This document shows positions 36,844 to 44,834 of a stretch of 64,000 bases of DNA, piece by piece. Positions within the stretch are counted from its first letter, which is position 1, and each line of letters begins with the position of its first letter. The translations under genes were made by a program, and so were the position numbers. This DNA is from Actinokineospora terrae (GTDB lineage: Bacteria > Actinomycetota > Actinomycetes > Mycobacteriales > Pseudonocardiaceae). Under the pieces are notes generated by a model. That model worked only from the letters and a program-made list of their open reading frames with translations, had not been told where the DNA came from and did no database searches. The DNA lies in assembly GCF_900111175.1 (NCBI RefSeq), contig NZ_FOGI01000002.1:480022-544021 (forward strand), read 5' to 3'.

Positions 36844-37521
36844 GTGGCGGAGAACCTGGGCAACGTGCTCCCGGTGTACGTGGTCGCGGACGAGTCGGCG
36901 TCGATGGCGGGGGTGGTCGGCGAGCTGAACGCGGGGCTGGCCGAGCTGCACCGGGCGTTGCTGCGGGAGCCGATGGCCGCCGCGAAGGTGCGGTTCACCA
37001 TCCTGGGGTTCTCCGACGACGTGCGGACCCGGTTGTCGCTGGCGGACCTGCGCACCGAGGCGACGCTGCCGGTGCTGGGCACCAGGTCGACCACGAACTA
37101 CGGCGCCGCGTTCGAGGCGTTGTCGCGGCAGATCCCGACCGATGTCGCCGCGCTCAAGGAGCAGGGGCACGCGGTGTACCGGCCCGCGGTGTTCTTCCTG
37201 ACCGACGGCCAGCCCACCGACGAGCCGGGGTGGCGGGCCGCCTACGACCGGTTGGTGGACAAGGAGGCCACGCCCGCGGCGCCGAACATCATCGCCTGCG
37301 GGATCGGCGGCGCGCGGGCGCGGACCATCCTGGACGTGGCGACCAGGCCGGAGTTCGCGTTCGTGGCCACGCCGGGGGTCGAGCTGGGTCTGGCGATCGC
37401 GGAGTTCAGCGTGGCGCTGACCAAGAGCATCGTCGCCTCGGCGCGCGCGGTGGCCGCAGACAAGACCGAGTTGGTGGTGGAGCGGCCGAACAGCTTCGTG
37501 ATGGCCGTCGACGTTGTCTAG
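36844..37521 (+). CDS. TerY-like von Willebrand factor A domain protein
   Basis: A 225-residue single-domain vWA protein. The metal-ion-dependent adhesion site is intact: DxSxS at Asp16-Glu-Ser18-Ala-Ser20, a Thr in GTRSTTNYGAAF and Asp in FFLTDGQPTD. It ends with a short basic/acidic extension. It is the first gene of a three-gene unit with a PP2C phosphatase and a protein kinase, the combination described as the TerY-P triad in tellurite-resistance/stress-linked systems. GGAGGG lies 6 nt before this GTG, which fixes the start 12 codons downstream of the longest frame. It overlaps the next gene by 8 bp. Confidence 0.88.
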   Translation: MAENLGNVLPVYVVADESASMAGVVGELNAGLAELHRALLREPMAAAKVRFTILGFSDDVRTRLSLADLRTEATLPVLGTRSTTNYGAAFEALSRQIPTDVAALKEQGHAVYRPAVFFLTDGQPTDEPGWRAAYDRLVDKEATPAAPNIIACGIGGARARTILDVATRPEFAFVATPGVELGLAIAEFSVALTKSIVASARAVAADKTELVVERPNSFVMAVDVV

Positions 37522-38389
37522 CAACCAGTCCGCCCCGGGGTTGGGCAGGCCGCTGGTGATCGGCACCCCGGTCGCCGAGTTCGAGCCGCGGCCGCCGAGG
37601 CGGGTGGGCGGGTACCGGCCGGACACAGCGGTCGACGGCTGGTCGAGCGCCGCGTTCACCGTGCGGGCCGCGTCGGTGCGGGGCTACCAGCACCGCCACG
37701 ACGGCACGCCGCGGCAGGACGACTTCGCCGTGTCGTGGCACGAGGGCACCGGGGCCGTGGTCGCGGCCGTCGCGGACGGGGTGTCGAGCGTGGAGCTGGC
37801 GCACCTGGGGGCCACCCTGGCGTGCCGCAGCGCCACCGACCAGCTGGTCAGGGTGCTGGACGCGGGCGAGGAGCCGGACTGGCCGGACGTGATGCGCTGC
37901 GCGGGCTGGGCGTTGGTCGAGTTCGCCAGGGGCCAGGCAGGCGCCGACAACCCGTCGGCGCGGGCGGAGCGCCTGCTGTCCACCACGCTGCTCGTTGCCC
38001 TGGTGCGGCCGCGCGAGGACGGGTCGGCCCGCGCGCAGGTGTGCCGGGTCGGTGACTCGACCGGCTGGGTGCTCGACGGCGGGACGTGGACGTGCCTGAC
38101 GGAGGAGTCCCCCGGGATCGCCGAGGTCGCGACCGTCGCGCTCCCCCACCTGCCCCGCGAGCTGCGGGCCGAGTCGGTCGACCTGCCCGTGGGGTCGGTG
38201 CTGCTGCTGGGAACCGATGGCGTCGGTGGCGCGCTCGGGGACGGCGCGGGCCTGGTCGGTGCCGCGTTCGCCGGGGCGCTGGGCAGCCCGCCGCCGCCGT
38301 TGGAGTTCGCCCGGTTGCTGGACTTCTCCCGGGAGACCTTCGACGACGACCGGACGATGTTGGGGGTATGGCCCAAGGGGGCGCCGTGA
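37514..38389 (+). CDS. PP2C-type protein phosphatase of the TerY-P triad
   Basis: A 291-residue Ser/Thr phosphatase. The metal-binding aspartates are seen in RQDDFAVS, AVADGVSS (the DG motif), LLGTDGVGGAL and DDDRTMLGVW, the PP2C order. It lacks membrane segments. A TTG start overlaps the vWA stop, and its own stop overlaps the kinase start (GTGA), so the three proteins are translationally coupled and presumably act together. It would reverse phosphorylation by the kinase or on the vWA protein. Confidence 0.88.
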   Translation: MSSNQSAPGLGRPLVIGTPVAEFEPRPPRRVGGYRPDTAVDGWSSAAFTVRAASVRGYQHRHDGTPRQDDFAVSWHEGTGAVVAAVADGVSSVELAHLGATLACRSATDQLVRVLDAGEEPDWPDVMRCAGWALVEFARGQAGADNPSARAERLLSTTLLVALVRPREDGSARAQVCRVGDSTGWVLDGGTWTCLTEESPGIAEVATVALPHLPRELRAESVDLPVGSVLLLGTDGVGGALGDGAGLVGAAFAGALGSPPPPLEFARLLDFSRETFDDDRTMLGVWPKGAP

Positions 38390-39969
38390 ACGACGTCCCC
38401 GAGGTCGACGCCAGGGCGCTGGGCCGGTTGCGGCTGCTCGGCACCGGTGGGCAGGGCAAGGTGCTGCGGCTGCTCGACCACGCCGACGGCCCGGACGCGG
38501 TGGTGTACAAGGAGTACAGCCCGCGGGTGGTCGACGACGTGGACGTCGACGCGCTGCGCAACTTCGTGGGGTTCGCGCACGGGCTCGCCCCGGGGGTGCG
38601 CGCGAAGCTGCTGGCGACGACCGCGTGGCCGGAGGCGGTGGTGCGCAAGGACGGCGTGGTCGTCGGGTTCCTGATGCGCAAGGCGCCCGCCGCGTACACG
38701 GCCGCCATGCGCTTCGGCGAGGAGACCAGCACCGAGCCCGCGCTGGTGCAGTTCCTGCTCAACCCGCCCGAGTACCTCGCGGCGCGCGGTCTGCGGCTCA
38801 GCCCCCGGTTCCGGTACGAGTTCCTGCACGACACCGCCACGGCGCTCGACCTGCTGCACGGCCTGGGGGTGGGCGTCGGCGACCTGTCGCCCAACAACAT
38901 GCTGTTCAGCCTGACCGCCCGACCGCGGGTCTTCTTCCTCGACTGCGACGCGATGCGGTTGGCCGGGGAGAGCGTGCTGCCGCAGGTGGAGACCCCGGAC
39001 TGGCGGATCAGCGATGTCGGGCCCGAGGAGCTTGCCACCCCGGGCAGCGACACCTACAAGCTGGGTCTGCTGGCGGTCCGGCTCTTCGCCAACGACCAGC
39101 AGAGCAGCGACCCGCGCCGGGTGCCGATCCGGTTGCGCGCCAAGGTGACCGCGAGCCTGCGCCGGGACCCCGACAAGCGGCCCAGCGCCCGGTCGTGGAT
39201 CGACGCGCTGGCCACGGCGGCCCGGGACGCGACCGACACGTCGGACACCCCTGAGCCCAAGCCTTCCCCGCCTCCACCGGAACCCGACGACGAGGTCGTC
39301 GAGCAGCCTCCCGCGCGGCAGCGGCCGCGGGTCGGCGTCGCCGGGGCTGTCGTGCTGGCCGTGGTGGCGCTCGGTGTCATCACGATGCTCAACCAGGCGT
39401 TCCCCGCCAAGCAGCCACGCGATCCGAGCCTGGGTCTGACGACCCTGGGGGTGTCGACCCCGGGGTACGACATCTACCGGTCCGTGTTGGCCCCACCGAC
39501 CGGCGGTGCCCGGATCCCCACCGCCGGGCTGCCCGGCGCCGCGACACCGCTCACGGGGTTGCCCGGGATCGGCCTGCCGGACTCGCCCCTGCGGCCCACC
39601 TACTGGCCCAGCAACCGGCCCACGTTCCTGCTCGACCCGGAAGACTTCCTGGTGTGCAGGCCCATCGTGCGGGCCGACCAGGGCGTCCGGGGTGGCGCTG
39701 GGCTGGACCTGGCCAAGATCGCCGTCGGCACGGTGGTGTGCGAGATCAACGCCGCGACCAGGACCCGGATCACCCGGATCGGGCTCGAGTCGCTGACCGA
39801 CCAGGGACCGGTCAGCGCGCCGCGGGTCGTCGGCTTCTGGGGTGAGGGCACCTCCTCGCCTCGGGTCGTGGCCGCGCTGACCACGAAGTCGGGTGGCTGC
39901 GTCCGGGTGTCGCTCCAGCTGACCGCGGCCTACAAGGTCTCCGCCGCGGGCGTCGCCGGGACCTGCTGA
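38386..39969 (+). CDS. Membrane-anchored protein kinase-like protein of the TerY-P triad
   Basis: The product has 527 residues. The N-terminal kinase fold has a Gly loop GTGGQGKV (19-26), VAIK-like Lys42 in VVYKEY, catalytic loop GDLSPNN (165-171, with Asp166 in place of the HRD Asp) and DCD at 186-188 instead of DFG. It belongs to the divergent RIO/Bud32-like bacterial kinases but keeps the catalytic residues. A Pro-rich linker (~288-312), one TM helix (~316-335) and an extracytoplasmic part of ~190 residues with two cysteines in the last third follow. The GTG overlapping the PP2C stop is preferred; an ATG at 38368 is possible. The stop codon lies in the first unit of a 15-bp tandem repeat shared with the convergent membrane gene. 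Confidence 0.85.
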   Translation: MNDVPEVDARALGRLRLLGTGGQGKVLRLLDHADGPDAVVYKEYSPRVVDDVDVDALRNFVGFAHGLAPGVRAKLLATTAWPEAVVRKDGVVVGFLMRKAPAAYTAAMRFGEETSTEPALVQFLLNPPEYLAARGLRLSPRFRYEFLHDTATALDLLHGLGVGVGDLSPNNMLFSLTARPRVFFLDCDAMRLAGESVLPQVETPDWRISDVGPEELATPGSDTYKLGLLAVRLFANDQQSSDPRRVPIRLRAKVTASLRRDPDKRPSARSWIDALATAARDATDTSDTPEPKPSPPPPEPDDEVVEQPPARQRPRVGVAGAVVLAVVALGVITMLNQAFPAKQPRDPSLGLTTLGVSTPGYDIYRSVLAPPTGGARIPTAGLPGAATPLTGLPGIGLPDSPLRPTYWPSNRPTFLLDPEDFLVCRPIVRADQGVRGGAGLDLAKIAVGTVVCEINAATRTRITRIGLESLTDQGPVSAPRVVGFWGEGTSSPRVVAALTTKSGGCVRVSLQLTAAYKVSAAGVAGTC

Positions 39970-40856
39970 GTCGGGACCTGCTGAGTCGAGACCTGCTGAG
40001 TGGGAGCCTTCTGAGTGGGCAGGTGCTGGGGGCTCGCGCCCTTGTGCAGCTGGTCGTTGACGGCGTCGGCGATCCGGGGTGTCAAGCCTGCTGCCACGTC
40101 GTGTCCCAGTGCCTCGGCCAGCCCGAGGTGCCCTAGGTCCACAGTGGACTCCACGGCGGCGCCGAACACCTCGGCGGCCACCCGTCCCCTGCGCCACCCG
40201 ACGATGCCGACACCGAGCGCGATGATCGACGACGGCCACCAGAACCAGACCGGCGCCAGGTACAGCACGCCCCACCCGACCAGCGTGGCCGCCAGGTCGA
40301 GCCTGCCCCGCGCCTGGGCGACCACGACCCGGGTGTCCGCGTCGAGCCGGTGCCAGAGCCGGGGCCAGATGAGGGCGAGCACCAGGCCGTACTGGGCGTC
40401 GACGCGGACGTCCACCAGGCGCAGCCGGTCGCCGATCCAGGTCGGCAGGGCGGGCAGGTACCGCTCGGGCAGTCGGCTGCCCGAGCGTTCCAGCGCGCGA
40501 CGGGCCCGGTGGGCGCGCAGCCGGGTGATCAGGCGCCCCGGCAGCGCCAGCGGTCCACGCCACCGGCCCCACCACAGCGACCGGACCGCGCCGCCGAGAC
40601 CCCGGGCGGCCAGGCTGGTCAGCATCGCGGCACCCACCGCGAAGCCGCCCCAGGCCAGTGCCTCGGTGGGCCGGTCGCGGACCAGGGTGCCGATCGCCCT
40701 GGCGGTGCCGGTGACCGCGCCGGGGTCGAACGGGTGGCCGTGGCCCTGGCGCACGGCGATGGCGAGGACGGCGAGCCAGAGCAGGCCGGGCAGCAGCGTG
40801 CCGACCAGCCAGCGGTCGGGCAGCCGCTTGGTCACCTCACCCAGGAGCGCGGTCAC
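39930..40856 (-). CDS. Multi-pass membrane protein of unknown function
   Basis: The product has 308 residues. Hydrophobic helices lie near ~17-35, ~67-90 and ~195-230, separated by Arg-rich loops. The C-terminal ~25 residues are Gln/Thr/Pro repeats (PTQQV) generated by the 15-bp tandem repeat it shares with the end of the convergent kinase gene (40-bp overlap). No family is recognised. It is the second gene of a small unit with a 119-residue Cys-rich protein 8 bp upstream. The pair is enclosed between the TerY-P triad and the TPR-CHAT gene, suggesting a membrane component of the same system. One copy of the TCCACAGTGGA motif lies in its coding sequence. GTG start. Confidence 0.7.
   Translation of the reverse strand: MTALLGEVTKRLPDRWLVGTLLPGLLWLAVLAIAVRQGHGHPFDPGAVTGTARAIGTLVRDRPTEALAWGGFAVGAAMLTSLAARGLGGAVRSLWWGRWRGPLALPGRLITRLRAHRARRALERSGSRLPERYLPALPTWIGDRLRLVDVRVDAQYGLVLALIWPRLWHRLDADTRVVVAQARGRLDLAATLVGWGVLYLAPVWFWWPSSIIALGVGIVGWRRGRVAAEVFGAAVESTVDLGHLGLAEALGHDVAAGLTPRIADAVNDQLHKGASPQHLPTQKAPTQQVSTQQVPTQQVPATPAAETL
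39958..40017. repeat. Four tandem 15-bp units at overlapping 3' gene ends
   Basis: Units GGGACCTGCTGAGTC (x2), GAGACCTGCTGAGTG and GGAGCCTTCTGAGTG lie head to tail. The first contains the kinase stop codon, and on the other strand the array encodes the Q-Q-V-x-T repeats of the membrane protein. Confidence 0.95.
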
Positions 40857-40864
40857 GGGTGCCC

Positions 40865-41224
40865 TCAGCAGCGCACGAAGCGCATCTGCTCGTCGAACAC
40901 CGCGCACCGCGGCGGGCGGGCCTGCTCGTCGCGGTCGGCGCGGCGGGGGCACCGCTTGCCGGGGCAGACGTAGGCGCCGACCAGGCTCGGGGCGGCCAGC
41001 CAGTCCGTGCGGGCCCCCACGCCGTCGTCGCGGTTGGGCGGCGGTGCCACGGAGAGGTCGAGTTCGCGGCAGGCCGACACGGCTGACCCGCCCGCGGCCA
41101 CCTCCGCCACGTGCATCTCCAGGGTGTCCTCCCAGAAGTTGCGGACCGCGCGGGCCCGCAACTCGGGCACCGCGGCGCAGAAGACCGCCAGTGCGTGCTG
41201 CTCGCCGTCGACCGGTGCGGGCAC
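40865..41224 (-). CDS. Small Cys-rich protein, 119 residues
   Basis: Not recognised. It has five cysteines, four of them in the last 35 residues (YVCPGKRCPRR, RCAVFDEQMRFVRC), which could bind zinc or form disulfides. The N-terminal half is helical (HALAVFCAAVPELRARAVRNFW). There is no signal peptide. It is divergent from the TPR-CHAT gene (77 bp between starts) and directly upstream of the membrane protein gene. Context suggests it belongs to the CHAT/TerY-P neighbourhood, perhaps as a substrate or regulator of the CHAT protease. GTG start; no strong ribosome site. Confidence 0.65.
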   Translation of the reverse strand: MPAPVDGEQHALAVFCAAVPELRARAVRNFWEDTLEMHVAEVAAGGSAVSACRELDLSVAPPPNRDDGVGARTDWLAAPSLVGAYVCPGKRCPRRADRDEQARPPRCAVFDEQMRFVRC

Positions 41225-41301
41225 CCTCGTTCCCTTCCCGAGCCCGGCGCGCCCGGGCTACCGTGGCGGTGATCGACTCTACCCGAGGGGGCTGGGCTGG
41301 G

Positions 41302-44300
41302 ATGGCCGATCCGGGTGGGTCGCCGCTGGACGACCTGGTCGCGCGGATGGCGCGGTTCGACCGCGACGGGGACCACTCTGCGGTGCTCGACGCCGCGGCG
41401 CACCAGGCCGCGCTCGACCAGTACGCGCGGGCGGTGGCCGACCGGACCACCGGGGCCGAGGTCGTTCGGGTGCTGGGCCAGTGGTTCCTCCGCCACCACA
41501 ACGCGCTGCCGCCCGGGGTGGGCGCGGCGTCGTTGCGGATGGCGCGGCTGTGCGCCGGGTTGGCGCGCGACGCCGATCCCGGGTCCCTCCCGCACGACCT
41601 GGACGCCCTGCTGACCGGCGACTCCGATCCGGCGCACGCCGCGCACGCCACCGCGGTCGTCCTGCTCGGCCAGTTCGAGGAGACCGGGGACCCGAGCAGG
41701 GTGGCGGCGGCGCGCGAGGTGCTGCGGTCGATGACCGACGACCTGGACGCCGACCACCCGCTGCGGACCGGGTTGAGCGAGGCCGCCCTGCAGCTGTCGT
41801 CGGCGCTGCTGACCATGAAGGCCGATCCGGCGGACGCCGAGGCGCTGGTGCGGTCGGCGCGGGCCGCGGTGCACGCCGTGCCGGACTCGAACGACATGGT
41901 GAACGCGCTGGCCTGGGCGTTGCTCGTGCGCCACCAGCTCACGGGCGGTCAGCAGGACCTGGTGGAGGCGCTGGAGCTGACCGAGCGCTTCCTGCGCGAC
42001 GGCCAGGGCGCGATCGTCGCGCACATCGCCGCGCAGCGCGCCGAGGCGTTGCGGGTGCGGTTCGAGAACACCCACGACATCGCCGATCTCGACCAGGCGG
42101 TCGCGTTGGTCCGGGAGGCGGTCGCCGCCACGGCGACCGGTCACCCCGTTGCCGACGCGCTGCGGCAGGTGCTCGCGACGTGCCTGATCCGGCGGGTCGA
42201 GCACCTGGACCGGGCCGACGACCTCGCGGAGGCGCTCGCGCTGTGCGCGGTGATCCGGCCGCGCCTGGCGAAGGCCGGGCCGTCGCGCGCGCACTGGCTG
42301 GCCACGGAGGCCGCGTTGATCACCCGACGTGCGCAGCGGAGTTCCGACCTGGCCGATGTGGACAACGCGGTGGCGTTGGCCGAGGAGGCACTACGACTGG
42401 CGCACGGACTTGACGGCGTGCGGCCGATAGCGCTGACGAACCTCGGTAGCGCGCTGGCGACCCGGTACTTCCTCCGCCGCGACCGAGACGACCTGGCCAC
42501 GGCCGTCCAACGGATCCGTGACGCCATCGAGGCGACCCGACCGCAGGACACGCGGCTGCCGCTGCTGCACGCGCAGCTCACCACGTTGACCGCGCTGGCC
42601 GCCGAGGACGGGGTGCGCGGCGCCGGGGTCGACGACGCCATCCGGCTCGGCGAGCAGGCGGTGGCCAGGCTGGAACCGGGTCGCGCCAAGCGGGTGTCCG
42701 CGCTCATCGCGCTCGGCCACGCGCACCGCCAGCGCTACGCCACCGAGGGCGCGGAGGCCGATCTGCTCAAGGCGGTCGCGTTGTGGCGGTCGGCGGCCGA
42801 GCAGCCGACCGGGGACGCGGGCGAGCGGATGACCGCGGCCCGGGCCTGGCTCGGGTCGGCGTTGCGGCTGCGGGACCTGCCCGCCGCGGTGGAGGCGGCG
42901 ACGGCGGCGATCCGGCTGTTGCCGGTGCTGGCCGAGCGGGGGCTCGACCGGGCGGCCCAGGAGCGCAGGTTGGCCGGGGTCGCGGGGCTCGCCGGTGAGG
43001 CCGCCGCGTTGGCCGTGCACGTGGGGCGGCCGGAGCACGCGGTGGAGTTGGCCGAGCAGGGCCGGACCGTGTTGTGGCGGCAGGCGGTGCAGACCCGGGG
43101 CGACCTGTCCGCGTTGCGCGCGGTCGCCCCGGACCTGGCCGACCGGCTGGAGGGCACCCGGCGCGCCCTGGTCGCCTCGGCCGACATCCCGGGCGAGGCC
43201 GAGCGCCACCGCCGACTCGCGCAGCGGTGGGACGTGCTGCTCGCCGAGGTGCGCCGGGTACCGGGGTTCGGCACGTTCCTCGGCGCGCGGCCGTTCGCGG
43301 AACTGCGGCACGCGGCGACCGGCGGGACGGTGGTGCTGGTCAACCTGGGGGTGGGGCGGAGCGACGCGCTGCTGGTGCGCCCGGACGGGGTCACCGTGGT
43401 GCCGCTGCCGTGGCTGCGCCCCGCGGACGTCCGGCGGCGGGCCGACGCGCTGTTCGCCGCGGCCGGTGAGCCGGTGGACCTGCGGCAGACGCTGGTGTCG
43501 ATGCTGCGGTGGCTGTGGGACACGGCGGCCGGGCCGGTCATCACGGCGCTCGACTCGCTCGACGGTCCGGTGCGGCACCGGGTCTGGTGGTGCCCGACGG
43601 GTCCGCTGGCGATGCTGCCGTTGCACGCGGCCGGGCGCTACGGCTCGTCGACCCCCGCGGGCAAGCGGCGCCCCACGGTCCCGGACCGGACCCTGTCGTC
43701 GTACACCACGGATCTCGGCGCGCTGATCCGGAGCAGGCGCGCGGGTACCGGTGACGTGTCGCGGTTGCTGGCCGTGGGGGTGCCGGAACGCGCCGGTCGT
43801 GCGCCGCTTCCCGCGGTGGTGGACGAGCTGAAGCGGATCGCGGCGACCGTGCCGGGGACGCGGACGCTGCTGGGCGCCGACGCGACACCGGCCGCCGTGC
43901 TGGCGGAACTGCCCGCGCACCCGTGGGTCCACTTCGCCTGCCACGCGACGCAGGACCTGGACCACCCCGGTGACAGCGCGCTGCACCTGCACGACGGCGA
44001 CCTGTCGGTGCTGCGGCTGGCCGCGCACGACCTGACCGGCGCGGAACTGGCCTACCTGTCGGCGTGCCACACCGCGGGCGGGTCGGTGCGGTTGGCCGAC
44101 GAGACGGTGCACCTCGCCGCGGCGTTGCAGCTGGCGGGGTTCCGGCACGTGATCGCGACCCAGTGGCCGGTGTCCGACCCGGTCGCGGCGGCCGCGGCCG
44201 ACTCGGTGTACCGGCACCTGGTGGTCGACGGTCGGCCGCGCTCGGCCGACGCGGCCCTGGCACTGGCGGCGACCACGGCGGCGCTGCGGGCGCGACACCC

Positions 44301-44346
44301 GGACCAGCCGGACAAGTGGGCGCCGTTCGTCCACATCGGACCCTAG
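41302..44346 (+). CDS. TPR-CHAT caspase-like protein
   Basis: The product has 1014 residues. The N-terminal ~700 residues are helical repeats of the TPR type (DADHPLRTGLSEAALQLSSALL, many A-L-A and L-x-x-A-L segments spaced about 34-40 apart). The C-terminal ~300 residues form a CHAT domain. The catalytic dyad is clear: His881 in WVHFACHAT and Cys922 in LSACHTAGG, followed by the ATQWPVSDPVAA strand-helix. CHAT proteases (separase/caspase-like) cleave partner proteins in bacterial immunity and signalling. The ATG starting MADPGGSPLDD is chosen; the open frame continues far upstream but is anti-sense to the neighbouring genes. It overlaps a convergent gene by 4 bp. Confidence 0.88.
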   Translation: MADPGGSPLDDLVARMARFDRDGDHSAVLDAAAHQAALDQYARAVADRTTGAEVVRVLGQWFLRHHNALPPGVGAASLRMARLCAGLARDADPGSLPHDLDALLTGDSDPAHAAHATAVVLLGQFEETGDPSRVAAAREVLRSMTDDLDADHPLRTGLSEAALQLSSALLTMKADPADAEALVRSARAAVHAVPDSNDMVNALAWALLVRHQLTGGQQDLVEALELTERFLRDGQGAIVAHIAAQRAEALRVRFENTHDIADLDQAVALVREAVAATATGHPVADALRQVLATCLIRRVEHLDRADDLAEALALCAVIRPRLAKAGPSRAHWLATEAALITRRAQRSSDLADVDNAVALAEEALRLAHGLDGVRPIALTNLGSALATRYFLRRDRDDLATAVQRIRDAIEATRPQDTRLPLLHAQLTTLTALAAEDGVRGAGVDDAIRLGEQAVARLEPGRAKRVSALIALGHAHRQRYATEGAEADLLKAVALWRSAAEQPTGDAGERMTAARAWLGSALRLRDLPAAVEAATAAIRLLPVLAERGLDRAAQERRLAGVAGLAGEAAALAVHVGRPEHAVELAEQGRTVLWRQAVQTRGDLSALRAVAPDLADRLEGTRRALVASADIPGEAERHRRLAQRWDVLLAEVRRVPGFGTFLGARPFAELRHAATGGTVVLVNLGVGRSDALLVRPDGVTVVPLPWLRPADVRRRADALFAAAGEPVDLRQTLVSMLRWLWDTAAGPVITALDSLDGPVRHRVWWCPTGPLAMLPLHAAGRYGSSTPAGKRRPTVPDRTLSSYTTDLGALIRSRRAGTGDVSRLLAVGVPERAGRAPLPAVVDELKRIAATVPGTRTLLGADATPAAVLAELPAHPWVHFACHATQDLDHPGDSALHLHDGDLSVLRLAAHDLTGAELAYLSACHTAGGSVRLADETVHLAAALQLAGFRHVIATQWPVSDPVAAAAADSVYRHLVVDGRPRSADAALALAATTAALRARHPDQPDKWAPFVHIGP

Positions 44347-44834
44347 TAGGCGGACGCGCCCACCAACCGCTCGGCGAGCACGTCCAGGACGTACCGCCGC
44401 TGCCTGGACGTCGTCACGGCGTCCTCGCGGTCGAGCAGCTCCCGGTACCGGCGCAGGCCGTCCTGCCCGAGGATCTGCCCGTACTCCGGCAACGCCTCGA
44501 CGAAGACCCCGTTCTCGCTGTCCAGGGCCAGGGTCACCAGGCTCTCGGCCAGCGCCGCCGGATCCGGCGTTCCCGCCGCGCAGGCGTCGAGGTGGATCTC
44601 CTGCGCCCGGTCGAGCACGTCGACCAGGGCGCCGTCGACATCGTCGATCTCCACCCGCTCCAACGCGGTGATGGCGTACTCGGTCAAGGCGATCGCCTCG
44701 TTCGGGGAGCCCGCGCGGATCAACCGCTCCACCTCGCGCAGCGCCTCGCGAACACCGGACAGGTACGCGTCGACCCCGTCCTCATCGATGTAGTCGTCCG
44801 CCTCGACGACCTCCCGCAGCCGCGCCTGGTCCAC
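44343..44834 (-). CDS. Helical acidic protein of unknown function
   Basis: A 163-residue, all-helical, strongly acidic protein (DDYIDEDGVDAYL, SENGVFVEAL). It resembles the helical-repeat C-terminal part found in some SWIM zinc-finger proteins (IALTEYAITALERV, DRAQEIHLDACAAGTPDPAALAESLV). There is no zinc finger here, so it is either a stand-alone relative or a remnant. GGGAGG lies before the GTG start. It is convergent with the TPR-CHAT gene with a 4-bp overlap. Confidence 0.7.
   Translation of the reverse strand: MDQARLREVVEADDYIDEDGVDAYLSGVREALREVERLIRAGSPNEAIALTEYAITALERVEIDDVDGALVDVLDRAQEIHLDACAAGTPDPAALAESLVTLALDSENGVFVEALPEYGQILGQDGLRRYRELLDREDAVTTSRQRRYVLDVLAERLVGASAY

What the first reader, a model, noticed from the sequence alone, without database searches (positions are those of the whole stretch)
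36844..44834. TerY-P-like triad next to a TPR-CHAT caspase-like protein, membrane protein and Cys-rich protein: candidate new signalling or defence island
A vWA protein, a PP2C phosphatase and a TM-anchored kinase are translationally coupled, the combination known as the TerY-P triad (Anantharaman, Iyer and Aravind's Ter system work). The usual TerD/TerC genes are absent. Instead the triad faces an undescribed membrane protein plus 119-residue Cys-rich protein, which is divergent from a 1014-residue TPR-CHAT protein with an intact His881/Cys922 dyad. CHAT proteases act in immunity and cell death. Inference: the kinase/phosphatase switch and vWA adaptor relay a signal that licenses the protease, with the Cys-rich or membrane protein as target.
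Basis: partly seen in the sequence, partly recalled or inferred. Interest (0 to 1): 0.8.

Follow-up and report, generated by a model that had tools for sequence, protein, structure and literature searches.

The report
CHAT protease cassette with kinase switch
Six neighbouring genes, a caspase-like protease with a small cysteine-rich helper and a membrane partner, plus a receptor kinase with its phosphatase and a scaffold protein, stay together as one cassette in a few soil actinomycetes, and the first three recur as a protease module whose job (perhaps controlled self-damage or stress control) still has to be tested.

Summary
The six genes are really there and form two parts. (1) A core of three: TPR-CHAT protease (intact His/Cys), a 119-aa protein with four conserved Cys (CYS), and a membrane protein of an unnamed family (MEM). 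It recurs in several gene orders in 67 of 80 named actinomycete loci read and in 25 of 40 loci fetched from the window's family; flanks vary. (2) A vWA-PP2C-kinase triad whose kinase is a one-TM receptor with a four-Cys outer domain. The trio is usually without the triad (0 of 80 named loci). But near-orthologues of this triad are nearly always with the trio: six complete six-gene cassettes in two families, three of them away from the window's flanks, with CHAT domains in one clade (0.996). So the trio is independent of the triad, while this triad subfamily is not independent of the trio. Triad and CHAT proteins are each known from published conflict systems; I found neither trio nor cassette in the papers I could search. 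Defence is unproven: no PADLOC fit, no defence enrichment among neighbours. Best reading: a membrane-linked CHAT protease module to which one lineage added a receptor-kinase switch.

The parts
36844..37521 (+). vWA protein (225 aa) with DESAS, T and LTDGQ motifs; the most conserved cassette protein
   Evidence: PF00092 2.8e-5; 67-92% identity in the five other complete cassettes
37514..38389 (+). PP2C phosphatase (291 aa with the TTG start at 37514; a start at 37556 is possible)
   Evidence: (PF13672 2.3e-23)
38386..39969 (+). Receptor kinase (527 aa): kinase domain, one TM helix, outer domain with four invariant Cys
   Evidence: motifs and four Cys in 7 of 7 orthologues aligned
39331..39387 (+). 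Kinase TM helix (residues 316-334)
   Evidence: hydropathy
39930..40856 (-). MEM: unnamed membrane protein (308 aa), nearly all helix, three or four membrane helices, conserved WPRLW, R225, E236, D240, K272
   Evidence: (pLDDT 89.7)
40865..41224 (-). CYS: 119-aa protein, helical N-terminus plus C-terminal Cys cluster; C16, C87, C92, C107 in 93 of 93 profile-found trio members; probable zinc site (inferred)
   Evidence: (pLDDT 81.3)
41225..41301 (.). 77-nt region between the divergent CYS and CHAT starts
41302..44346 (+). TPR-CHAT protein (1014 aa)
43501..44340 (+). CHAT protease domain (residues 734-1013) with His881 and Cys922

Best explanation
The core is a three-protein module: a caspase-like TPR-CHAT protease, a small four-Cys (probably zinc-binding) adaptor, and a membrane protein that anchors it. 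CYS and MEM are encoded next to each other and most likely form a complex at the inner face of the membrane that docks the TPR region of the protease and keeps it quiet. In the window's lineage a receptor-kinase switch was added once: the outer four-Cys domain of the kinase senses a change at the cell envelope, the kinase phosphorylates cassette proteins with the vWA protein as scaffold, PP2C resets the switch, and the protease is licensed. Once active it cuts the CYS-MEM complex and/or other proteins, giving a membrane-linked response such as growth arrest or death. Shown: gene content, motifs, co-conservation, one clade. Inferred: complex, zinc, direction of the signal, substrate and outcome.
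For: Trio in 67 of 80 named loci; in each of the 67 CYS directly precedes MEM on the same strand, with CHAT divergent upstream (49), downstream (14), upstream same strand (3) or convergent downstream (1), so the link is not one shared promoter. 26 of 32 CYS-profile places in 140 family genomes adjoin a MEM match (matched by eye). Distances of MEM, CYS and CHAT correlate (r 0.79, 0.82, 0.77; 0 of 2000 permutations each; no species-tree control). Four Cys in 93 of 93 CYS; W164-W168, W195, P208, R225, E236, D240, K272 at 98% or more in MEM. CHAT His/Cys kept in 104 of 104. In nine of ten distant MEM loci with a CHAT gene but no CYS-profile match, the gene directly upstream of MEM ends in a Cys/His cluster (read by eye). 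Six complete cassettes, three of them (L036, L206, L209) without the window's flanking genes; CHAT clade 0.996. Kinase: one TM and four outer Cys in 7 of 7.
Against: No experiment. No usable solved-structure match for the MEM or CYS models, so anchor and effector cannot be told apart. L207 keeps triad plus CHAT without CYS or MEM. L100, inside the cassette clade in the MEM, CYS and joined trees, has the trio and no triad. Three named loci with about 9 kb on both sides have CYS-MEM and no recognisable CHAT (L154, L160, L170, the last with a broken MEM). Four distant CYS relatives have no MEM match (L182-L185). CYS members were collected by profile, so members lacking a Cys may have been missed. 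Neighbours show no defence enrichment.
Confidence: 0.45

Rival explanations
1. Toxin-restraint reading: CHAT is a toxic protease and CYS-MEM its antitoxin-like inhibitor rather than its effector; loss or modification of CYS-MEM frees it.
For: CYS-MEM is a fixed pair beside CHAT in all four gene orders; a small partner beside a toxic enzyme is often its restrainer (recalled, general).
Against: CYS-MEM without recognisable CHAT exists (L154, L160), odd for an inhibitor without its toxin, and L207 has a cassette CHAT without the pair.
Confidence: 0.2
2. Ordinary envelope-stress or developmental signalling: a regulated protease for differentiation or cell-wall homeostasis, not immunity.
For: Found under actinomycete titles in all 80 loci listed, many of them genera known as filamentous (recalled); no PADLOC model fits and neighbours are not defence-enriched; receptor kinase with an outer domain.
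Against: Patchy: 43 of 140 family genomes have a MEM-profile match, weak ones included, and 3 of the 6 sampled genomes of the own genus; 3 of 396 across the phylum at E<=1e-30, the window's own included. MEM relatives occur on 10 Streptomyces/Embleya plasmid records, some of megabase size and only one covering 80% of the query. Distant CYS relatives sit beside TCAD9, caspase-helicase, Sa_NUDIX and pPIWI-RE genes.
Confidence: 0.25
3. Two unrelated modules that happen to lie side by side; the triad does not act on the CHAT trio.
For: Trio mostly triad-free (0 of 80 named loci); L100 has lost or never had the triad.
Against: Six complete cassettes with the same order and orientation, in two families, three without the window's flanks, down to 38-50% identity for most proteins in the farthest; a seventh kinase orthologue lies directly before a CHAT gene (L207). 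Other triad subfamilies lie near CHAT genes in 2 of 14 stretches.
Confidence: 0.1

Closest known systems
Actinobacterial kinase-PP2C-vWA set in GAP1-N2 GTPase conflict systems (Kaur et al. 2020, PMC7159879; passages read)
   Same: Kinase fused to a zinc ribbon or to TM helices, PP2C and a stand-alone vWA protein encoded together, in actinobacteria
   Different: No GAP1 or GTPase named among the ten window proteins scanned; instead linked to CHAT-CYS-MEM
TerY-P triad (definition as quoted in PMC11090510; passages read)
   Same: vWA, PP2C, Ser/Thr kinase set
   Different: Kinase has a TM helix and an outer four-Cys domain instead of a C-terminal zinc ribbon; no PADLOC model matches the vWA or PP2C protein
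TPR-CHAT protease Csx29 of type III-E CRISPR (Craspase; listing and abstract starts)
   Same: TPR plus CHAT layout, His/Cys dyad
   Different: NCBIfam Csx29 model scores 20.8 bits against a cut-off of 300; no Cas protein named among the ten window proteins scanned; other partners
EACC1-caspase systems (Kaur et al. 2020; passages read)
   Same: Small membrane component beside a caspase-superfamily protease, strongly tied to multicellular bacteria
   Different: EACC1 is a single-TM domain; here a Cys protein with no predicted TM plus a multi-helix membrane protein
CATRA caspase-dependent ternary systems (named in PMC8195603, passage; primary paper not held)
   Same: By its name, caspase and TPR parts in a ternary system (details recalled)
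   Different: CATASP model (PF20271) matches none of 26 CYS members at E<=0.1; the own genome's CATASP matches lie on other contigs with no CHAT in the 17.5-kb stretches read

Membership tests
TerY-P triad | vWA + PP2C + Ser/Thr kinase encoded together | tested here: met
TerY-P triad | Kinase with C-terminal zinc ribbon | tested here: not met
   TM helix and outer four-Cys domain in 7 of 7 orthologues; definition
TerY-P triad | Ter genes (TerC/TerD) nearby | not tested
   only ten window proteins between 35193 and 45453 were scanned; none was named a Ter protein
Actinobacterial GAP1-N2 kinase-PP2C-vWA theme | TM-fused kinase, PP2C, stand-alone vWA | tested here: met
   definition
Actinobacterial GAP1-N2 kinase-PP2C-vWA theme | GAP1 and GTPase genes in the neighbourhood | tested here: inconclusive
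   none named among the ten window proteins scanned; genes farther out and the other five cassettes were not scanned
Csx29/Craspase | Match to the Csx29 model over its cut-off | tested here: not met
   20.8 bits against 300
CATRA ternary system | CATRA-associated small protein (CATASP, PF20271) | tested here: not met
   0 of 26 CYS members at E<=0.1; own-genome matches are elsewhere
CATRA ternary system | CATRA domain protein as published | tested here: inconclusive
   no CATRA-named Pfam match in the window's proteins or 25 MEM members; the defining paper could not be read
EACC1-caspase system | Single-TM EACC1 domain protein | tested here: not met
   MEM has three or more hydrophobic segments in 92 of 93 members and CYS none at the usual cut-off in 93; no EACC1-named Pfam match
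Known anti-phage systems (PADLOC-DB 2.0.0) | Strong match of system proteins | tested here: not met
   six of seven proteins no match at E<=1; kinase only weak hits, best 1e-4

The most novel reading that the evidence does not exclude
CHAT-CYS-MEM is the founding subtype of a new class of bacterial protease system in which a TPR-CHAT protease, a zinc adaptor and a dedicated membrane protein form a membrane-bound death or arrest machine, and in one lineage it is fired by a transmembrane receptor kinase: a bacterial counterpart of receptor-controlled caspase signalling.
Probability: 0.3. Interest if true: 0.85.

Novelty: new variant of a known kind. Interest (0 to 1): 0.6.

Why it matters
CHAT proteases are known to act under an RNA-guided complex (Craspase, abstracts) and, as recalled, beside bacterial gasdermins. 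Here a CHAT protease has two dedicated partners of unnamed families in many actinomycetes and, in one clade, a complete phosphorylation switch with an outer sensor. If they act together, this is a compact, six-gene, testable case of a receptor kinase controlling a caspase-like protease in bacteria, and two new protein families (CYS, MEM) to place in the conflict-system network.

Tried and rejected
Rejected: (a) 'the triad is irrelevant to the trio': my first reading, overturned when kinase near-orthologues were fetched. (b) DUF6880 (44343-44834) as a part: not found beside the five other complete cassettes. (c) Csx29, CATRA and EACC1 membership: see table. (d) Defence-island test: 75 genes next to named trio loci (75 drawn from 126 candidates) and 75 far ones (all 75 candidates); at E<=1e-10 PADLOC gave 10 models with 11 member matches near and 5 models with 5 member matches far; four of the near models are IetA and two Csa3, so the near proteins hit may be as few as about six; no clear enrichment. 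The far set lies in the same stretches, so a broad island would be missed. (e) Fold look-up: MEM best Foldseek E 0.28 and VIA Z 5.1 (4clv, rmsd 7.3, 129 aligned); CYS best Foldseek E 3.1 and VIA Z 2.6; nothing usable, and a fold that Foldseek missed is not excluded. (f) CHAT protein against PDB sequences: none at E<=1. (g) Empty site: six stretches around homologues of the flanking methyltransferase (from 12 matches in 11 of 16 genus genomes) showed none of the window's right-hand neighbours except an amidase hit in L211, so no clean empty site. (h) A second CHAT/Cys-rich/membrane layout in the own genome (L219): its membrane protein matched 6 of 140 genomes; one of the six other matches has a CHAT domain within the roughly 3.5-kb stretch held (L223).

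Literature: searches (listings and abstract starts) showed no paper on the trio or the six-gene cassette; passages only were read in PMC8195603, PMC7159879 and PMC11090510. The primary CATRA paper was not held and the primary Ter paper was not looked up, so 'not in print' cannot be claimed. The name MIDAS for the vWA motif, the gasdermin link and toxin-antitoxin lore are recalled.
Full report
What is there. Kinase and MEM ends overlap convergently by 40 nt. Pfam names vWA, PP2C and CHAT; the kinase is below cut-off but has its catalytic motifs; MEM and CYS, alone or as sets of 25 and 26 members, reach no Pfam cut-off. The DUF6880 gene at the right edge looks like a bystander.

The core trio. 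A search of 140 genomes of the window's family with MEM gave matches in 36. I fetched 40 loci around matches. By profile 25 have CHAT, CYS and MEM; one (L056) has CHAT and MEM; six have a more distant MEM with CHAT but no CYS-profile match; eight have no CHAT in the stretch, one of them (L062) at a contig start, whose missing half, CHAT and CYS at the end of another contig of that genome, was found (L186). The CYS profile found 32 places in 30 of 140 genomes: 26 directly beside a MEM match, one the split trio of L186, four in L182-L185 without MEM, and one weak match with stops (G014) that the re-search did not recover. The MEM profile matched 43 of 140, weak matches included. A scan of the GTDB genome collection gave 197 loci encoding a MEM relative; the best 80 were returned and read, all with actinomycete titles. 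Of these 67 have all three genes, six CYS and MEM only, five CHAT and MEM without a CYS-profile match, two MEM only at a contig edge. Three of those five (L120, L135, L169) have a CYS-like Cys cluster in the expected place on inspection. Gene order varies, but in each of the 67 CYS precedes MEM on the same strand. Flanking genes vary: apart from the trio genes and one CYS-sized cluster in the CYS position, the commonest neighbour cluster occurs in 10 of 80 loci.

Anatomy of the partners. CYS: four Cys (window C16, C87, C92, C107) are kept in all 93 distinct trios aligned (99 of 111 loci passed the length and adjacency filter, 93 distinct); members were found by profile, so exceptions may be missed. 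The model has helices at the N-terminus and a small C-terminal cluster (pLDDT 81.3); no TM segment is predicted. MEM: nearly all helix, pLDDT 89.7, three hydrophobic segments in 69 and four in 22 of 93 members, with W164-P-R-L-W168, W195, P208, R225, E236, D240 and K272 conserved at 98% or more. Neither model has a useful PDB match. CHAT His and Cys are kept in 104 of 104 proteins collected with the window's CHAT domain. Distances of the three proteins correlate; without a species-tree control this is only consistent with co-inheritance.

Wider relatives. Distant MEMs keep the theme: ten loci have such a MEM with CHAT but no CYS-profile match, and in nine (L067, L069, L070, L071, L075, L188, L190, L194, L196; not L064) the gene directly upstream of MEM ends in a Cys/His cluster (read by eye). 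Pfam supports a zinc ribbon only weakly: of the four scanned, L190 at 0.011 and L069 at 0.076 (Zn_ribbon_8), L188 and L075 nothing. Other distant MEMs (for example L065, L066, L068, L072-L074) have no CHAT in the stretch. Four distant CYS relatives without MEM lie in other settings: beside TCAD9 proteins (L182, L184, L185), Sa_NUDIX (L182), a caspase-helicase protein (L184) and pPIWI-RE (L185); L183 has a NUDIX-like neighbour by eye only. That is the company of predicted conflict systems.

The triad. The kinase matched 22 of 140 family genomes at E<=0.001. Fourteen stretches with distant kinases were read: 13 have vWA, PP2C and kinase together, one (L097) the kinase alone; they sit in several partly recurrent settings, seven with a protein cluster whose one scanned member is DUF4407, and two with another CHAT gene nearby (L086, L091). 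At E<=1e-40, 7 of 297 family genomes matched. Five of them, the window, G623, G631, G562 and G066, have the complete six-gene cassette; G574 has triad and CHAT without CYS and MEM; G586 cannot be read on the relevant side because its contig ends there. G343, from another family of the same order and met through MEM in a phylum survey (3 of 396 genomes with MEM at E<=1e-30, the window's own included), is a sixth complete cassette; the third genome of that survey, G162, has CHAT and MEM without triad. The window, G623 and G631 share flanking genes; G562, G066 and G343 show none of the window's flanks. In the CHAT tree the six form exactly one clade (0.996); MEM (0.993), CYS (0.918) and joined (1.0) trees add L100, a Streptomyces trio without triad. 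The simplest history is one joining of triad and trio, later transfer or rearrangement as a unit, and one loss. The named scan showed none of this, probably because its output may leave out near relatives of the window and only 80 of 197 loci were returned.

How it may work. The kinase has one TM helix and an outer domain with four invariant Cys in 7 of 7 orthologues; vWA is the most conserved protein (67-92%), the kinase the least or tied for least in each cassette. I infer a receptor kinase, PP2C reset and vWA scaffold acting on a membrane-linked CHAT protease. What is cut, and whether CYS-MEM is anchor, restrainer or effector, is open; L207 shows that the switch can go with a CHAT protein lacking the pair.

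What is known. A TM- or zinc-ribbon-fused kinase with PP2C and vWA in actinobacteria is described in GAP1-N2 systems (PMC7159879, passages), TerY-P and an antiphage OB-fold relative in PMC11090510 (passages). CHAT proteases are known from Craspase (abstract starts). Eight searches showed no paper on the trio or the cassette, but the library lacks most subscription papers, the primary CATRA paper among them.

Against a defence role: no PADLOC fit, no clear defence enrichment among neighbours. For it: patchiness, MEM relatives on 10 plasmid records (surroundings not read), conflict-system company of CYS relatives, and the CHAT protease itself. I leave immunity at roughly even odds and score the finding 0.6.

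Noticed in passing
L182:9631-9990, L184:9564-9917, L185:9583-10002, L183:4372-4771: Distant CYS relatives without MEM, three of them beside TCAD9 proteins, with Sa_NUDIX, caspase-DEAD and pPIWI-RE neighbours; the CYS family may be a shared adaptor of several predicted conflict systems.
   Followed up: partly
L219:3725-7878 (own genome, C11) and L223: Another TPR-CHAT gene divergent from a 113-aa Cys/His-rich protein and a 197-aa putative membrane protein, unrelated to CYS/MEM by profile; same layout, different families.
   Followed up: partly
L086:9107-18347 and L091: Triads of another kinase subfamily lie near other CHAT genes.
   Followed up: partly
L065, L066, L068: Distant MEM relatives without CHAT in a shared block of neighbours (clusters c4, c7, c9, c11).
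   Followed up: no
L160:6273-8510: A 745-aa protein divergent from CYS-MEM in the place of CHAT, with no CHAT match; perhaps a CHAT-less TPR partner.
   Followed up: no
window 44343-44834: DUF6880 gene overlapping the CHAT stop; not found beside the five other complete cassettes.
   Followed up: yes
L217, L218 (own genome): CATASP-like proteins in two parallel loci with a TIR-like and a ParA-like gene and a 1023-1024-aa protein, no CHAT in the stretch (TIR and ParA read by eye).
   Followed up: no
plasmid records H1-H10: MEM relatives on Streptomyces and Embleya plasmids, six of ten annotated hypothetical protein; surroundings not read.
   Followed up: no
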